Source: Thermoanaerobaculia bacterium (GTDB lineage: Bacteria; Acidobacteriota; Thermoanaerobaculia; Gp7-AA8). From it: 42,159 nucleotides of DNA. The notes below the pieces were generated by a model. It saw only the letters and a list, made by a program, of their open reading frames with translations. It had not been told where the DNA came from and did no database searches. Of this stretch, positions 5,799 to 26,599 are shown one piece after another. The stretch's first letter is position 1, and every line of letters begins with the position of its first letter. The stretch lies in assembly GCA_017883235.1 (NCBI GenBank), contig JADGNY010000052.1:1-42159 (forward strand). The letters run 5' to 3'. Made by a program: the position numbers and the translations under genes.

Positions 5799-8012
5799 TC
5801 ATTGCCTCGACGGCCGCCGACGCGGTGGGCCGGTCATCGGTCCATCGTCGTTCAGAATCGTGACCGTTCCGATGCCGTTGCCGATGTCCGCGTTCGCCGG
5901 ATCTGACAGCACGACGGTAAACGTCTGGTCAGGCTCCGGGATGGTGTCGCCGAATACGTGCAGCTCGATCGACCGCGCCACTTCGCCGGGCGGAAACTCC
6001 AGGACGCCCCGCGACATCTCGTAGTCCATGCCTGCTATCGCGCTTCCATCGACCGTGGTGTACGCCACCCGTACGATCTTTGACGATGGTTCCGTGAGCT
6101 GTACGAGCAGCTCGACGACCTGCGTTCCCGCGTTCCCCTCGGCGATGGCGATGCTCGATACCGAGAGCTGCGGCAGCAGGACGGTTTGTTCGACCGATGC
6201 CGAGCTCGGCTCGAAATTCGGATCACCGGAATAGGAGACGACGAGCTGATGATGGCCGGCCGGCAAGCCCGGCATGTTCACGGTGGCACCACCGCCGATG
6301 AGAGTCTCCTCGGCGAGGGTGGCTCCGTTTTCCGACACGGTCACTTTGCCGGTGGCGGTGAGAGAGGGATGGTCCGTAACCGTGACGGCGACCTTCACCA
6401 GCAGTTGCCCGGCAACGGGGGTATTCGGGAACAGATCGGCTCGCACCTCTGTGCGCGCCCTTGCCACGGTCTGCCCAAGCACGCCGCTCGCGCTGGGGGT
6501 GAAGTTCGGATCGCCACTGTATTTCGCCACGACGGAATGCACGCCCGGGGCGAGAACCGAGGTCACGAGAGTGGCGCTCCCGTTCGAAACGGGGATAGAG
6601 CCGATGGACATGCCATCGACTTCAAAGGAAACCGTGCCGGTCGCTGCCGCGACGAAACCCGCCGGCCCGACCGTTGCGGTGAACGTCACGGCATCGCCAT
6701 AACGAGTCGCGGCGCTGGAGGTGCCGAGGGCCGTGGTCGTCACTCGTTGTTGCACCTGGTGGGTCACAACGGCCGACGTGCTGCCGAAGTAGAGATGGGA
6801 TGGTTGGTAGACCGCGGTGATGTTGTGCGTCCCCGCCCCGAGGTCTGACGTCGTCCATGTGGCGGTACCGTTGTGCGCGGTGACGATCGCAACAGTCGCA
6901 GCGCCCTCATAGAAAATCACCAGGCCGCCCGGAGGCGTGCCCGCATCCGAAGTCACCGTCGCCGTGACCGTGACAGGATCGCCGTAGGACGTCGTCGCCG
7001 CGCTCTGGACCGCCGTCGTGGCCGTTCCCCCCACCGTCGTCAGAACGACGTCGTTGCCGTCTCCGCCGGCATAGCTGATCTTTAACAGGTAATTGCTGGG
7101 AATGATCGCCCCTTCCGGCGCTCCATGAAAGGTGCCCACGACCGGATCGGTGCCGTCGTTGTCGATGATCGTGAAGGTCTGCCCCAGAACCGGAGATCCG
7201 CTCACGACAACGCCGATCGAGCTGTTCAGAAACACGGTGCCGGTGACCTGCACCGCGCTCGAAACACCGTTCGTCGCCAGTTGCACGTCATAGTCGCCGG
7301 CGTTGATCGCGAGGGACTTGGTGTGAATGACGGCGGAGCCGCCCCCGAAATTGAGGGGCTGAAGCGAGCCGCCGTTCAGCGTCACATTGCCCAGCGTCCC
7401 CGCGCCGATGACTTCCTCGGTGTGCCCACCCGTCTGGCCACCGCCAATGATCACGTTGGCATTCGGCATCGACCCGCCCACACGAATCGACCCGTTGATC
7501 GTGCCGTTGAACGTACCGTCGCCGATGAGGGTGAGGGGAGGAGAGATCTGGACGACGTTGACCGTCCCGCTACCGTTCAGCGAGTTGATATTCGTGGGTC
7601 CGTCGATCGTCAGCGTCTGCCCATTCACGTCGATCTTGTCGGTGGCGTAGGCGCCGGTCAACCGGACCGGAGCACCGATCTTCAAGGGAACGAGGACGAG
7701 GAGAGCTCCCGCCGTGTTCACAACGTCGCCGGTAAGCGTCAGCGGATTGCCGTCGATCGTGTAGGCCGAGGCGTTGAACGTCATCGGCCCCACGGTCCCA
7801 GAAGGAAGATCATTCGTCATCCACAGGTTCGGCACGCCCGGGGGGAAGATCAGCGAGTCTCCGGACGCGGGGATACCCGCCGGCGACCAGTTTCCTGTGG
7901 CTGACCACGATCCACTGAACACACCCGTCCACGTCCTGGTGATCGCGGACGAAGGGAGGGCGATGAGGGACAGAACGATGCATGCAGCAAGAACGTATGA
8001 CGAACGGCGCAC
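5799..8012 (-). CDS. Secreted Ig-like and Calx-beta repeat protein
   Basis: Secreted protein of 737 aa. The GTG at 8012 is supported by an AAGGAG ribosome site 7 bases upstream and a signal peptide of about 23 residues (VLSLIALPSSA cleavage region). Residues about 25-330 form a beta-rich head with repeated G/N/T segments like those of autotransporter-type beta-helices. Three bacterial Ig-like repeats follow at roughly 335-425, 425-515 and 520-610, each with a VTVTATV or similar strand and an LxAGxHxxxAxYxGD pattern. The C-terminal 100 residues are a Calx-beta domain (IAEGNAGTQ; AIAGMDYE; VTILNDD). Calx-beta domains bind Ca2+ and are usual in adhesins. No membrane anchor or sorting tail is visible. 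Function is likely adhesion or surface architecture, by inference only. Confidence 0.82.
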   Translation of the reverse strand: MRRSSYVLAACIVLSLIALPSSAITRTWTGVFSGSWSATGNWSPAGIPASGDSLIFPPGVPNLWMTNDLPSGTVGPMTFNASAYTIDGNPLTLTGDVVNTAGALLVLVPLKIGAPVRLTGAYATDKIDVNGQTLTIDGPTNINSLNGSGTVNVVQISPPLTLIGDGTFNGTINGSIRVGGSMPNANVIIGGGQTGGHTEEVIGAGTLGNVTLNGGSLQPLNFGGGSAVIHTKSLAINAGDYDVQLATNGVSSAVQVTGTVFLNSSIGVVVSGSPVLGQTFTIIDNDGTDPVVGTFHGAPEGAIIPSNYLLKISYAGGDGNDVVLTTVGGTATTAVQSAATTSYGDPVTVTATVTSDAGTPPGGLVIFYEGAATVAIVTAHNGTATWTTSDLGAGTHNITAVYQPSHLYFGSTSAVVTHQVQQRVTTTALGTSSAATRYGDAVTFTATVGPAGFVAAATGTVSFEVDGMSIGSIPVSNGSATLVTSVLAPGVHSVVAKYSGDPNFTPSASGVLGQTVARARTEVRADLFPNTPVAGQLLVKVAVTVTDHPSLTATGKVTVSENGATLAEETLIGGGATVNMPGLPAGHHQLVVSYSGDPNFEPSSASVEQTVLLPQLSVSSIAIAEGNAGTQVVELLVQLTEPSSKIVRVAYTTVDGSAIAGMDYEMSRGVLEFPPGEVARSIELHVFGDTIPEPDQTFTVVLSDPANADIGNGIGTVTILNDDGPMTGPPRRRPSRQ

Positions 8013-8258
8013 GATGTGCTCCTTACGCGCACGGCTGGACTGAAGCGTCCGCGCGACTCAAAGGACTGATGGACCGCGATGGTTATAACGCTCTATTGGA
8101 CTGGCGTCCACAGTTATTCGCGGTGCATTGCTCGAACCTATCGCCACCCCGTTTCGTTCGAGAGTCCGAGAGGCCGTTGGCGATTTTGTCTGGAGGAGTG
8201 CGTAGCCCTGGGAGCGCGGGCGTCTCGCCCGCGCTTACGCCGGCTTCGCCGGCGTAAG
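8013..8258. other. Intergenic region with small palindromes
   Basis: Upstream region of the Ig-like gene (minus strand). It contains the AAGGAG ribosome site for that gene, then about 190 bases with no gene I can support. At 8214-8255 there are two short palindromes, GCGCGGGCG...CGCCCGCGC and ACGCCGGC..GCCGGCGT. The same CGCGGGCG-type palindrome recurs near 8842-8872 and 26558-26585. Confidence 0.6.
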
Positions 8259-8769
8259 AGGCAGTTCAACTGCCTCCGGGAGCGTGTTAACTGCATCCAG
8301 GAACGTGCTAACTGCCTCCGACAGGCAGTTTAACTGCCTCCAGGAACGTGTTAACTGCCTCCGAGAGCGTATTAACTGCCTCCGACAGGCAGTTTAACTG
8401 CCTCCGGGAGCGTGTTAACTGCCTCCAGGAGCGTGTTAACTGCCTCCGACAGGCAGTTTAACTGCCTCCGGGAGCGTATTAACTGCCTCCGAGAGGCAGT
8501 TTAACTGCCTCCGGGAGCGTGTTAACTGCCTCCGAGAGGCAGTTTGACTGCCTCCGGGAGCGTATTAACTGCCTCCAGAAGCGTGTTAACTGCCTCCGAC
8601 AGGTAGTTTAACTGCCTCCGGGAGCGTATTAACTGCCTCCAGGAGCGTGTTAACTGCCTCCGGGAGCGTATTAACTGCCTCCGGGAGCGTGTTAACTGCC
8701 TCCGGGAGCGTGTTAACTGCCTCCGAGAGCGTGTTAACTGCCTCCGAGAGGCAGTTTAACTGCCTCCTG
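8259..8769. repeat. Array of about 24 tandem 21-22 bp units
   Basis: About 24 consecutive units built on AACTGCCTCC followed either by GGGAGCGTGTT (21 bp) or by GACAGGCAGTTT (22 bp). Where the second type meets the next unit it makes the perfect 15-base palindrome GGCAGTTTAACTGCC. Variation is limited to a few positions (GG/AG/AC/AA after CTCC; GTG or GTA). There are no unique spacers, so it is not a CRISPR array. It lies between the end of the DUF1501 gene and the start of the Ig-like gene. Confidence 0.93.
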
Positions 8770-8969
8770 TTGCCGCGTTAGCGGCAAACAAGCGCGGGCG
8801 TCTCGACACCGCGCTTGCAAGCAGCAGGATGCCGAGCATCAAACGCGGGCGAGACGCCCGCGGTCCCAGGGGTTACTTCTTCAACAACCCGTTCATGTTA
8901 TCCGCAAGCCGCTTACACTCTGTCCCGGCATCGACCACCACCGCGGATGAGAGGTAACAGGGTGCCCCC
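8770..8969. other. Intergenic palindromes and a possible gene-tail relic
   Basis: Holds GCCGCGTTAGCGGC (the small palindrome also ending the 225-bp elements) and a CGGGCG..CGCCCG palindrome ending near 8872. On the minus strand about 8874-8940 reads as an open tail ending DNMNGLLKK and a stop, with CKRLAD before it. It has no start codon or ribosome site of its own and is in a different frame from the DUF1501 gene. It may be the 3' remnant of a lost gene; I am not sure. Confidence 0.35.
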
Positions 8970-10202
8970 CTACGCCAGAATCCCCTTCCACTTCGACGGC
9001 GACGTGTCGTAGCCCGGAAACACGCTCCTCAGCGACGGCACGGCGAGCTGTTTCGTCAGCAACTCCGAGAAGACATCGCGGAAGTCGGTGGTGATGGCCA
9101 GATCGCGATTCTCGTAGAGCTGCTGTGACGACAACCCCGGCCACTTACCGTACACCTTGCCGCCTTTGACGCCGCCGCCGAGGACCAGCATCACGTTGGC
9201 GTGGCCATGATCCGTTCCGCGGTTGCCGTTCTCGCGGACCGTACGGCCGAACTCCGACATCGTCACCAGCACCACGTCGCCCATGCGCGAGCCGAGGTCG
9301 CGCGTGAACGCGGCGATGGCATCGGAGAAATTGCGGAGATTGTTCGCCAACTGCCCCTGCGCGCCTCCTTCGCCGGCATGCGTGTCCCAGCCGCTGACGT
9401 CGGCGAAGGCCACCTCGAGGCCGACGTTCGATTTGATGAGCTGGGCGATCTGCCGGAGCGAGTTGCCGAGTGGGCCATTCGGATAGACGGCGCCATTCTC
9501 CGGCTGCAGCTTCTGCGGATCGGCGCTCTTGAGGATGCGCGCCACCTCGAACGATTCCTTGGCCGTCCCTCCCAGCGTTCCCGCCACCGCCTCGGCGTAC
9601 ATCGATTCGAAGCCGCCGCTGACGTTCGCGCCGCCGCGAATCCCGAACTGGCTCAGGTTCGTCATCGCCACCGCACCGGCGGAGCCCGCCAGGATGCGCG
9701 GCAGCGCCGGCGAGAGCGCCACGGCACGCAGCGGCGACACCGGCGTCCCTTTCTTCATGCCGACCGCGCGGGAGAGAAACCCATCCTCGGTCGATTTCAC
9801 GCCGGGCGTTCCCGACTCCATGAAGTCCTGCGCGTCAAAGTGCGACCGCGTCGCGTCGGGAGAGCCGGCGGCATGCACGAAGGCCGCGCTGTGATCCTTG
9901 AAGTACGGCGTCAGCGAGGCCAGCGACGGATGCAGTCCGAAGAATCCGTCGAGATCGATGGCACCGCCCGCGGCGCCGGGACGCGGCACCGCGATGGTCG
10001 GCCGCGCGTCGTAGTACGCCTTCTCGCCGAACGGAACGATGACGTTCAACCCGTCCACCGCTCCGCGCTGAAAAATCGCCACCAGCGTCTTGCTCCCCTT
10101 CGTCGTCGCGGCATTGGCCATCTTCACGAACACACTGGGAAGCAGACTGCCGCCGACGAGAGCAAGGCCGGAGGATTTGAGGAAGATTCGTCTGTCGATC
10201 AT
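8970..10202 (-). CDS. DUF1501 domain-containing Tat-exported protein
   Basis: Protein of 410 aa, alkaline phosphatase/sulfatase-like fold family DUF1501, of unknown activity. The N-terminus is a twin-arginine signal (DRRIFLKSSG, then a hydrophobic stretch to about residue 30), so it should be exported folded. Family motifs are FQRGAVDGLNVIVPFGE, DAQDFMESGTPG, SGWDTHAGEGGAQG, and the C-terminal MSEFGRTVRENGNRGTDHGH. The start at 10202 is chosen over an in-frame start at 10244 because AGGAG lies 5 bases upstream and the Tat signal begins there. It follows the DUF1800 gene by 13 bp, the standard partner order, so the two proteins probably act together in the periplasm. Confidence 0.93.
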   Translation of the reverse strand: MIDRRIFLKSSGLALVGGSLLPSVFVKMANAATTKGSKTLVAIFQRGAVDGLNVIVPFGEKAYYDARPTIAVPRPGAAGGAIDLDGFFGLHPSLASLTPYFKDHSAAFVHAAGSPDATRSHFDAQDFMESGTPGVKSTEDGFLSRAVGMKKGTPVSPLRAVALSPALPRILAGSAGAVAMTNLSQFGIRGGANVSGGFESMYAEAVAGTLGGTAKESFEVARILKSADPQKLQPENGAVYPNGPLGNSLRQIAQLIKSNVGLEVAFADVSGWDTHAGEGGAQGQLANNLRNFSDAIAAFTRDLGSRMGDVVLVTMSEFGRTVRENGNRGTDHGHANVMLVLGGGVKGGKVYGKWPGLSSQQLYENRDLAITTDFRDVFSELLTKQLAVPSLRSVFPGYDTSPSKWKGILA

Positions 10203-10215
10203 GGGGTCTCCTGGG

Positions 10216-11925
10216 TTACTGCCTCTGAAACTCCGGCGAGCCAAGAATCAGCCCGGCCACCGTCGGCAGTTGGGTGTTGTCCCACGGATCGACGGACGGT
10301 ACTTTCCGATCAACGATCCGCGATTCGACGATCCGCGATTTGATGGTGTTGCGCGTCTCCTGCGTCAGGTTGCCGCCCGTCAGCGCCAGCGCCAGCGCTT
10401 CGACGGAATGCGAGGCGTCGGCGGCCTGCCCCGCGGGGATGAGCGCCTGCATGAGCGCAACGACGTCCCCGTGCACGCCCGGCAGTTTGTTGGACGCCAG
10501 TGACAGCGCGAAATTGAGGCGATTCATCAGCGCGCCGGTATTGATCCAGACGTCGGCCTTGTCGCTGTAACCGGTCGGCGGCTGCGCGCCGTAGAGCGGC
10601 TCGCCGATCTGCTGCAACGCTCGCGCAATCGGCGCCGGATCGGTGATCTGCGCGTTCACTGCGCGCACCGCCGAGATCGTGTACTCGAACGGCGACTTGA
10701 CCTTGGCGCGATACGACGCCGGATCCCAGAATTCGGGACTCTCGATCACCGCCCGGACGGTCTGGCGGAGATCGCCGTCCGTCATCAGGAACTTCTTCGC
10801 CACGCGATCGACGAGCGCCGGCGGCGGCTCATCGGCGACGAGGCGTTGGCAGAGCTTGAGCGCTATGCGATGGGCGGTGGCCGGCTGGTGCGCAAGGACG
10901 TGGATCATCCTCTCCCCTTCCTCGATCCCGCCGCCGGGGGCGAAGCGGATGCCGAGGACGATCTTGGCGCCGGCGTCGTGCATCTGCGGCCGGAAGACGA
11001 AGGCAGCGCCCTCACCGCTGCCGTCGCGCTCCCGGCTGATCGACCAGCCGGTCAGCACGCGCGCCAGCTCGGTCACGTCCTTCTGCGTGTAACCGGCATC
11101 GACGCCGAGCGTGTGGAGCTCCATGATCTCCCGCGCGTAGTTCTCATTGAGCCCCCCCTCTTTTCCCTGGAACTGTGCGCGCTGCATCATCGCGCGGCGG
11201 CCGAAGCCGAACCGTCCGCCGAATCCGCGCTGCTGCATGACAGGACGGTTCTCCGGAGCGGCCATGGAGCGGGCGTTGTCGAGATAGAACAACATCGCCG
11301 GCGATTTCGCGGTGGCCATCAGGAGATCTTCGAAGCGCCCCCAGATATGCGGCCGGATGACATCGCGCTCGTAGCTCGTCAGCAGAAACCGGTCGAGGCC
11401 CTTTCCGGAAAAGATGTTGAAGTGATTCATCCAGAAGTCGACCATCACCTCGTTGAGCTGGCGATCGGACTCCGCGGCACGCAGGATGCGCTGCGCGACG
11501 AGCTCGTTCATCACCACCTGCGGCCGCTGGTTCATAGGAATGTCGCGCATGAGCTCGCGGCGCACCTCCTCTTTCTCCAGGTCGCCGCTCTTCCCCTCGG
11601 CATTGGCCTTCTTCCGCGCCATCAGCACCGGCTCGTAGTACGTCTTCACGATCTGCGCATTCGACAGCGTCATCGTCGGCAGAGCGGCGATGCGCGCTTC
11701 GACCGCGCGATCCGGAATCCCCTCGGGATGAAGCTGCCGTTCAATCCACCGATCGACGCCATCCTTCATCACCGCATCAACCTCCCCCGGCCGCGGCCCG
11801 AACGCCAGCCGGTTGAGCGCATGAAGAGCCCGCTGCCGGTCATTGAGTTTGCTATCCGAGGTGGTGATACCGGTGAGGAGGGCGAGGGCGATGAGTCCGG
11901 CAAGGAGTTTGGGGGCGTGGTTCAT
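10216..11925 (-). CDS. DUF1800 domain-containing protein
   Basis: Exported protein of 569 aa from the DUF1800 family, which almost always precedes a DUF1501 gene in Acidobacteriota, Planctomycetes and others. A signal peptide covers about residues 1-22 (LLAGLIALALLTGITTS). Family motifs are HALNRLAFGPRPGEVD, MVDFWMNHFNIFSGKG, NENYAREIMELHTLGVDAG and DVTELARVLTGWSI. An insertion rich in Gly, Arg and Phe (GFGGRFGFGRRAMMQ, about residues 233-247) interrupts the domain. The activity of the family is not established. It is first in a two-gene operon with DUF1501 13 bp downstream. Confidence 0.93.
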   Translation of the reverse strand: MNHAPKLLAGLIALALLTGITTSDSKLNDRQRALHALNRLAFGPRPGEVDAVMKDGVDRWIERQLHPEGIPDRAVEARIAALPTMTLSNAQIVKTYYEPVLMARKKANAEGKSGDLEKEEVRRELMRDIPMNQRPQVVMNELVAQRILRAAESDRQLNEVMVDFWMNHFNIFSGKGLDRFLLTSYERDVIRPHIWGRFEDLLMATAKSPAMLFYLDNARSMAAPENRPVMQQRGFGGRFGFGRRAMMQRAQFQGKEGGLNENYAREIMELHTLGVDAGYTQKDVTELARVLTGWSISRERDGSGEGAAFVFRPQMHDAGAKIVLGIRFAPGGGIEEGERMIHVLAHQPATAHRIALKLCQRLVADEPPPALVDRVAKKFLMTDGDLRQTVRAVIESPEFWDPASYRAKVKSPFEYTISAVRAVNAQITDPAPIARALQQIGEPLYGAQPPTGYSDKADVWINTGALMNRLNFALSLASNKLPGVHGDVVALMQALIPAGQAADASHSVEALALALTGGNLTQETRNTIKSRIVESRIVDRKVPSVDPWDNTQLPTVAGLILGSPEFQRQ

Positions 11926-17823: not shown

Positions 17824-17924
17824 GTCGTCGACAGAAGATTCGACGGATGCTCATGGCCGGCGAAGCCGGCTTGAGAACCTAGCCGACGGCTTCAGCCGGG
17901 GGCCTTGAGATTGGACGTTATGAC

Positions 17925-18148
17925 GCCGCGATAGCGGCTCAAGACGGTAGCCAGGGGTGCGAGCGCTTTTTGCGAGCACCCCTGGTCTGCGTTGTCTCTT
18001 GAAAGCGTGCCGCGTTAGCGGCACTGGATGGGATCCCCGATTACTCCAGTGCCGCTGACGCGGCACCAAACCACGACATCTCTTTACCAGGGGTGCTCGC
18101 AAAAAACGCTCGCACCCCTGGCTACCGTCTTGATGCCGCTAACGCGGC
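17925..18148. repeat. Dispersed 225-bp palindromic element, copy B
   Basis: Bounded by GCCGCGATAGCGGC and GCCGCTAACGCGGC. It contains both CCAGGGGTGCGAGCG-type outer arms and the GTGCCGCG..CGGCACTGGA inner arms. The right half matches copy A in inverted orientation, including the otherwise variable spacer (ACCAAACCACGACATC). Confidence 0.9.
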
Positions 18149-18207
18149 AACCCCGCCGGCTGAAGCCGGGGCTACGACCTTAAGCCAGCTTCGCTGGCGC
18201 AATCCGG

Positions 18208-26221: not shown

Positions 26222-26599
26222 ATACAACCCTGGGACCGCGTGCGTCCCGCACGCGCTTCTTGCAGCATCCTGCCCGACAGCGAGGGCGAGACACCCGCGC
26301 TCTGGGATTTGGACGCTACGACGCCGCGATAGCGGCTCAAGAAGGTAGCCAGGGGTGCGAGCGTTTTTTGCGAGCACCCCTGGCTACTGAGCTCCACCAA
26401 GACCGTGCCGCGTCAGCGGCACTGGATGGAGTTGTCGATTGCTCCAGTGCCGCTGACGCGGCACGAAATCGACAATTATCCGCTTCCAGGGGTGCTCGCA
26501 AAAAACGCTCGCACCCCTGGCTACCGTCTTGTTGCCGCTAACGCGGCAAAAAAAGCGCGGGCGAGACGCCCGCGGTCCCAGGGGTATCCTCCCTCCTCC
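26222..26599. other. Repeat-filled intergenic region
   Basis: No gene. It holds a small palindrome (GCGTGCGTCCCGCACGC) near 26240, the 225-bp element copy C (26323-26547), and a CGCGGGCG..CGCCCGCG palindrome near 26558-26576, followed by the thioesterase start. Confidence 0.75.
26323..26547. repeat. Dispersed 225-bp palindromic element, copy C
   Basis: Same plan as copies A and B: GCCGCGATAGCGGC edge, CCAGGGGTGCGAGCG arms, GTGCCGCGTCAGCGGCAC inner palindromes, and GCCGCTAACGCGGC edge. The spacers inside (for example GAAATCGACAATTATCCG) differ from those of A and B but are partly self-complementary with the centre. Confidence 0.9.

What the first reader, a model, noticed from the sequence alone, without database searches (positions are those of the whole stretch)
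8259..8769. 24-unit palindromic tandem array between two exported-protein loci
About 24 units of 21-22 bp with little divergence, alternating between two types so that GGCAGTTTAACTGCC hairpins recur at irregular intervals. It lies upstream of the surface Ig/Calx-beta gene. It could be a phase-variable or transcription-pausing element, a protein-binding array, or a recently expanded satellite.
Basis: seen in the sequence. Interest (0 to 1): 0.6.

Follow-up and report, generated by a model that had tools for sequence, protein, structure and literature searches.

The report
Dispersed 21-base satellite in soil bacterium
The repeat block is one copy of a non-coding 21-base satellite that has recently spread through an uncultured soil bacterium's genome; blocks of this kind were found upstream of the examined genes of an unknown, multi-copy protein family, which gives a first handle on a known but unexplained class of bacterial repeats.

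Summary
In detail: 24 units spaced only 21 or 22 bp, window 8258-8767. It is not a local switch. The family occurs at 22 or more places in this Acidobacteriota genome and matched none of 99 relatives; 20 of 20 clustered arrays are intergenic. Its 64-bp higher-order unit is nearly as alike between arrays (0.905) as within them (0.921), so ready-made arrays dispersed recently. Both congeners lack the array and the Ig/Calx-beta gene at this site. This genome and congener G002 hold many unrelated arrays of the same period, matching a published, unexplained class: constant-size, variable-sequence bacterial repeats (PMC8161180).

New: a link to an orphan, mostly 150-240-aa protein family X. Nine of nine X genes with enough upstream DNA have 21-bp repetition upstream, among them the window's own family on contig C97. 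X is most numerous in the three genomes where 21-bp arrays were clearly seen. I propose that arrays are two-turn-phased platforms for a cognate protein, probably X; binding is inferred, not shown.

The parts
8258..8767 (.). 24-unit tandem array, units of 21 or 22 bp, degraded 64-bp higher-order unit (22+21+21)
8235..8257 (.). hairpin TTACGCCGGC-TTC-GCCGGCGTAA at the left edge of the array
   Evidence: read
8770..8787 (.). hairpin TTGCCGCGTTAGCGGCAA at the right edge; 48 places genome-wide with up to 1 mismatch
8206..8236 (.). left outer inverted-repeat arm, REP-like, 94% complementary to 8841-8871
   Evidence: I7
8791..8872 (.). right outer repeat (called REP82 here), dispersed through the genome
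   Evidence: 30 distinct copies compared
5799..8012 (-). neighbouring gene: Big_3_5 and Calx-beta domains; absent from this site in both congeners
8970..10244 (-). neighbouring gene: DUF1501; in both congeners followed at once by a gene that I read as the M16 peptidase
17904..18150 (+). copy of a ~240-bp nested-hairpin element (E) whose two end hairpins also bound several arrays of the family
26302..26549 (+). second copy of element E in the window

Best explanation
The array is an 'away' copy of a mobile non-coding satellite of the constant-size, variable-sequence class. SHOWN: the unit is held at 21-22 bp (two DNA turns) here and in unrelated arrays of the same genome and of a congener; the family is dispersed as ready-made arrays in intergenic DNA, several of them framed by hairpin repeats; arrays lie upstream of the examined genes of an orphan protein family X, and the window's own family has such a place ('home') 795 bp upstream of an X gene on contig C97. 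INFERRED: X proteins (basic, with an RRKK and Pro/Ala tail in the best-sampled subfamily) or another protein bind the repeats cooperatively, one complex per two turns on one face of the helix, which keeps the unit length while the letters drift and lets arrays be kept and copied elsewhere. The window array then acts as a binding platform or selfish passenger, not as a switch of its neighbours.
For: Spacing of unit centres over the 20 main-family arrays: 21 x182, 22 x68, 20 x1, 23 x2, plus 13 longer gaps of 42-64. Best lag between 10 and 30, heptamer arrays left out: own sample 39 of 52 arrays at 21/22 (sample enriched for this family), G002 12 of 16. Substitutions to indel events: own arrays 677:75, G002 arrays 245:8, dispersed REP82 control 199:52 (Fisher 2.5e-5 and 2.9e-10). 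20 of 20 main-family arrays intergenic in ~82% coding DNA. 64-mers: 49 units in 13 arrays, identity within 0.921, between 0.905. A second family, the pair beside X on C147, also matches six other contigs. X link: G002 4 of 4 X genes versus 7 of 291 other genes, p 1.1e-6; own loci not chosen for arrays 2 of 3 versus 13 of 422, p 0.003. Without the two genes that led me to the link (L206, L174) the same scan test gives 3 of 3, p 2.9e-5, and 2 of 2, p 0.0012. With a long upstream gap required, G002 4 of 4 versus 1 of 50, p 1.6e-5. Nine of nine evaluable X genes by the sensitive scan, one of them (L154) chosen for its array. X matches: 31 in G000, 28 in G002, 15 in G009, 4 in G001, 1 in G016, 0 in six others.
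Against: No binding, transcription or structure was tested. Of the 22 main-family places only C97 has a listed X gene within 1.2 kb (C159 has one about 8 kb away). Distances from array to X range from 38 to 1107 bp and other predicted genes lie between in some cases. The link across genomes rests on few, related genomes and partial DNA samples. L186 and L201 score only 0.63 in the scan, and L186 has a 14-bp array just downstream. In the TRF test the own sample gives 2 of 3 (p 0.0012) at score 60 but 1 of 3 (p 0.056) at score 80, and without L174 1 of 2 (p 0.037). Dyad symmetry, striking here, is only modest across families (Fisher p 0.067 own, 0.008 G002), so a strict palindromic-site model is not general. 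TRF favours regular arrays, which inflates the substitution:indel ratio; the 64-mers were picked by likeness to one consensus, which raises the between-array identity.
Confidence: 0.5

Rival explanations
1. Protein-free selfish satellite: arrays grow by slippage or unequal exchange and spread inside hairpin-framed modules; the 21-22 bp size is set by the copying process, and X genes merely share the same repeat-tolerant neighbourhoods.
For: Array edges coincide with dispersed hairpins in several loci; two unrelated array families share one module on C100; most arrays of the window's family, and the other contigs of the second family, have no listed X gene close by.
Against: X genes have arrays upstream far more often than other genes with equally long upstream gaps, and no 21-bp signal downstream in G002 (0 of 4). 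A pure copying bias does not explain why G001, of the same genus, showed none in 292 kb.
Confidence: 0.3
2. The arrays are upstream regulatory DNA of X genes (repeat number tunes X expression); dispersed copies are by-products.
For: Arrays upstream in the evaluable set, as near as 38 and 70 bp.
Against: Distances vary up to 1.1 kb with predicted genes between in several cases; most arrays of the window's family are not near X.
Confidence: 0.15
3. Cargo of a REP/RAYT-type system: hairpin ends are cut and moved by a Y1 transposase of the genome.
For: Nine Y1_Tnp matches in the genome, one with a REP82 copy about 0.25 kb upstream; hairpin-bounded modules.
Against: REP82-type matches near only 2 of 9 Y1 loci, one of them just an arm of 24-25 bp, where the background (9 hits per 266 kb) predicts about 1 in ~30 kb; cap and edge hairpin near none of the 9.
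Confidence: 0.08
4. Phase-variable switch of the Ig/Calx-beta gene.
For: Position about 250 bp upstream of its start; three promoter-like matches in the array on that gene's strand against 0.1 expected.
Against: Sister arrays beside other genes; array and gene absent from this site in congeners; unit far longer than classical contingency repeats (recalled).
Confidence: 0.03

Closest known systems
Constant-size, variable-sequence bacterial tandem repeats, 20-21 nt class (Subirana and Messeguer; of PMC8161180 I saw the outline, part 1 of 2 of the results, the discussion and found passages; their J Bacteriol 2020 paper is not held)
   Same: Unit of two helical turns, many unrelated families per genome, non-coding, species-specific, patchy between related species.
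   Different: 21-22 bp mix with a 64-bp higher-order unit; hairpin frames; linkage to an orphan protein family. The main text of PMC8161180 does not contain 'Acidobacter'; in the parts I read it names no associated protein and says of its 52-nt class that there is no evidence for a Cas-like protein.
REP/REPIN-RAYT systems (search listing with abstract openings only; details recalled)
   Same: An extragenic palindromic repeat with home copies beside a gene and away copies dispersed.
   Different: Head-to-tail 21-bp arrays; X shows no match to Y1_Tnp or convincing match to any Pfam family; REP-type repeats here are not enriched near Y1 genes.
Transposed satellites of Leptospira interrogans and Methanocella conradii (PMC6749651, parts 1-2 of 5 read)
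   Same: Non-coding satellites dispersed through a prokaryotic genome.
   Different: Those are families with long repeats, and such transposition is described as rare.

Membership tests
Constant-size variable-sequence tandem repeats (20-21 nt class) | One unit length shared by families of unrelated sequence in a genome | tested here: met
   15 clusters (3 are the main family and near relatives) at 21/22 bp in the own sample, 11 in G002
Constant-size variable-sequence tandem repeats (20-21 nt class) | Non-coding | tested here: met
   20 of 20 main-family arrays intergenic by my own gene caller; 4 of 39 arrays of all clusters overlap predicted ORFs by more than half, possibly ORFs made by the array itself
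Constant-size variable-sequence tandem repeats (20-21 nt class) | Species-specific sequence | tested here: met
   no match of the window array at E <= 0.001 in 99 relatives
Constant-size variable-sequence tandem repeats (20-21 nt class) | Short motif shared by the repeats of one species | tested here: inconclusive
   G002: TCGATG in 5 of 11 families, reached by 0 of 300 shuffles; own: best 6-mer in 4 of 15 clusters, partly from related clusters
Constant-size variable-sequence tandem repeats (20-21 nt class) | Transcribed (reported for the 52-nt class) | not testable with these tools
   no RNA data
REP/REPIN-RAYT | Cognate Y1 transposase gene beside repeat copies | tested here: not met
   2 of 9 Y1 loci, about what background gives
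REP/REPIN-RAYT | GTAG or CGTC tag on the palindrome | not tested
   not examined
CRISPR array | Constant repeats separated by unique spacers | tested here: not met
   units are head-to-tail, without spacers
MITE-type element | Terminal inverted repeats | tested here: met
   window arms of 31 bp, 94%; the L163 array carries the cap core at both ends in inverted orientation, the L164 array an intact cap at one end and a worn one at the other
MITE-type element | Target-site duplication | tested here: inconclusive
   none evident by eye in L163; not tested systematically

The most novel reading that the evidence does not exclude
X genes and 21-bp arrays form a new kind of two-part genetic system: a diversified protein family (about 30 copies per genome) in which each member has its own helically phased repeat array upstream as cognate site, with array copies spreading through the genome, which would explain why repeat length is fixed while sequence turns over.
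Probability: 0.25. Interest if true: 0.82.

Novelty: new variant of a known kind. Interest (0 to 1): 0.6.

Why it matters
Bacterial tandem repeats of fixed length but free sequence were described without a mechanism; the paper I could read names no partner protein in the parts I saw. A protein family whose genes sit beside such arrays, and which is most numerous where arrays were seen, turns that puzzle into a direct test: does each X bind its own array in a two-turn register? If so, it would be a bacterial parallel of satellite DNA with binding proteins that let sequence drift but keep length.

Tried and rejected
RAYT mobilisation: REP82 and cap copies are not enriched at the 9 Y1_Tnp loci. 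Loss of SbcCD (palindrome nuclease, recalled role) as the permissive cause: TIGR00619 passes its cut-off only in G002, which has arrays, and has no match in array-rich G000 or in G001; 8 of 11 genomes have no match. Known RNA element: no Rfam hit at gathering threshold in the window or in four X loci. Spread by phage or plasmid: no match of the array region in the phage or plasmid records and no exact 20-base unit in viral contigs; X not found in viral contigs, plasmids or phages. General dyad symmetry of units: only modest across families. Known function of X: nothing convincing in Pfam, NCBIfam, PHROGs, PADLOC or PDB sequences. Same-position arrays in congeners with other letters: at the window site neither congener has one; L174 and L206 both have two arrays about 1 kb upstream of X genes that are each 68-70% identical to the X of L178, but the neighbouring genes differ, so I do not call them the same locus. 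Contig-end enrichment of X genes was looked at by eye and dropped as inconclusive.

Full report
OBSERVATION. The array is real. Tandem Repeats Finder reports 8268-8767, 23.5 copies of 21 bp, score 622, with similar scores at 43 and 64 bp. A conserved decamer occurs 24 times with spacings of 21 or 22 only. Written out, the array is a worn 64-bp higher-order unit of three monomers, 22+21+21, in which the 22-mer carries the GGCAGTTTAACTGCC palindrome. The edges are hairpins (8235-8257 and 8770-8787) and the whole lies between inverted REP-like arms at 8206-8236 and 8841-8871. The flanking genes are DUF1501 and a Big_3_5/Calx-beta protein.

ONE OF MANY. BLAST in the own genome finds the array family at 22 places (where 40 of 393 first-look candidates were scored, so this is a lower bound; C236 end and C229 start share an overlap and may be one array). 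Seven of these reach a contig end, so repeats of this kind break the assembly. Nothing was found in 99 relatives, two of them of the same genus. The best named relatives of the neighbouring DUF1501 protein are a Thermoanaerobaculia and other Acidobacteriota MAGs. In G002 and G001, which are the genomes of loci L071 and L072, DUF1501 is followed at once by a gene I read as the M16 peptidase, with neither array nor Ig/Calx gene between; the Ig/Calx protein has only partial matches in those two genomes.

HOW IT SPREAD. Across 13 arrays, 49 units of 64 bp, picked by likeness to one consensus, are 92.1% identical within and 90.5% between arrays; the nearest neighbour lies in the same array for 16.2 of 49 units against 3.7 expected. 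So ready-made arrays were dispersed recently, with some local copying since. All 20 arrays clustered with the main family are intergenic although about 82% of the sampled DNA is coding by my own gene caller. Several arrays share caps of about 50-110 bp whose core occurs 43 times genome-wide with up to 1 mismatch. The cap core and the edge hairpin (48 places) are also the two ends of a ~240-bp nested-hairpin element, two copies of which lie in the window. On C25 an array lies inside such an element; on C100 one module holds two unrelated 21-bp families.

CONSTANT SIZE, FREE SEQUENCE. Loci fetched without regard to arrays contain further tandem arrays of unrelated sequence with the same period. 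Taking the best lag between 10 and 30, 39 of 52 arrays in the own sample and 12 of 16 in the G002 sample have 21 or 22 (the own sample is enriched for the main family, and many stretches begin at contig starts). G001 showed none in 292 kb. In G009 one array of 20 copies and one short one were found in 100 kb; one array was called among the remaining sampled genomes. Control loci L072-L150 (79 loci, 879 kb; L072 is from G001) gave one 21-bp lag, from a heptamer repeat, and at a lower threshold two weak three-copy calls of period 21. Substitution to indel ratios (9.0 own, 30.6 G002, against 3.8 for dispersed REP82 copies) point to a constraint on length, with the caveat that TRF prefers regular arrays. 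This fits the class described in Bacillus by Subirana and Messeguer (PMC8161180): 20-21 nt, variable sequence, species-specific, function unknown, two turns of the helix noted.

LINK TO AN ORPHAN PROTEIN FAMILY. When array flanks were compared between genomes, a multi-copy gene appeared beside arrays in both (first seen at L174 and L206). Family X, here 146-238 aa as predicted, has pI 8-10.5 and, in its best-sampled subfamily, RRKK and a Pro/Ala-rich tail. It has no convincing match in Pfam, NCBIfam, PHROGs, PADLOC or PDB sequences. In held DNA I found 12 X genes (11, and L298). Nine have at least 1.2 kb of upstream DNA; in all nine the best 84-bp window within 1.5 kb upstream matches itself at lag 21 by 63-99%, while other lags of 15-30 reach at most 50%. 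Distances for the seven called by TRF at score 60 are 38, 70, 795, 858, 878, 1016 and 1107 bp, all upstream. L154 had been chosen for its array; the other eight had not been chosen for an array near X. With fixed gene models: G002 4 of 4 X genes against 7 of 291 others (p 1.1e-6), own loci not chosen for arrays 2 of 3 against 13 of 422 (p 0.003); the miss there, as I read the coordinates, is L174, whose predicted start lies further downstream, while in the TRF tests the miss is L186. Without the discovery cases L206 and L174 the scan test gives 3 of 3 (p 2.9e-5) and 2 of 2 (p 0.0012). The TRF test for the own sample is weaker: 2 of 3, p 0.0012, at score 60; 1 of 3, p 0.056, at score 80. Restricting to genes with at least 600 bp upstream gap leaves G002 4 of 4 against 1 of 50, p 1.6e-5, and own 2 of 2 against 3 of 99, p 0.002. 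Downstream of X the 21-bp signal is seen in 0 of 4 (G002) and 1 of 3 (own), the one being the 14-bp array of L186. The window's own family is the one beside the X gene of C97 (L154, 795 bp). A second X-linked family (C147) matches six other contigs, one of them weakly. Single-protein search, all candidates scored: 31 X matches in G000, 28 in G002, 15 in G009, 4 in G001, 1 in G016, 0 in six others. By profile over 100 genomes, with at most 31 candidates scored in each: 31, 31, 28, 8 and 2 in the same order, one weak match in G030, none in 94.

MECHANISM. Shown: dispersal, constant length, intergenic position, linkage to X. Inferred: a protein reads the arrays in a two-turn register. X is the best candidate because its genes sit beside arrays and it is most numerous where arrays were seen, but binding is untested.

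NOVELTY. The class is known. An Acidobacteriota example with a higher-order unit, hairpin frames and a linked orphan protein family did not appear in the listings of my searches of the open library; the key 2020 paper was not held, and I read only the papers named above. I therefore rate it a new variant of a known kind, with a novel two-part system as a live possibility.

Noticed in passing
L163:9195-9420 (-), L174:3897-4099 (+), L208:13833-13945 (-), L206:11246-11397 (-): A conserved leader of up to 226 nt upstream of one X subfamily (77-93% identity to that of L163), with hairpin-like stretches by eye and no Rfam match: a candidate structured RNA.
   Followed up: partly
window 17904-18150 and 26302-26549: Two copies of a ~240-bp nested-hairpin dispersed element whose ends also frame satellite arrays.
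   Followed up: partly
L163:8144-8566 and L208:12170-13267: A second uncharacterised gene directly downstream of X in two loci (66% identity over 117 aa): possible partner of X.
   Followed up: no
L186:10841-10961, L260:2982-3084, L284:283-362, L286:4354-4465: Heptamer-type (7 or 14 bp) tandem arrays turn up repeatedly in the own genome and in sampled relatives; three heptamers also make 21 bp.
   Followed up: no
L071 and L072 just downstream of DUF1501: The site that holds the array here holds other palindromic sequences in the two congeners, which look like interspersed repeats (sequence read).
   Followed up: no
G000 genome: SbcD (TIGR00619) had no match in 8 of 11 genomes of this group, including the window's genome.
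   Followed up: partly
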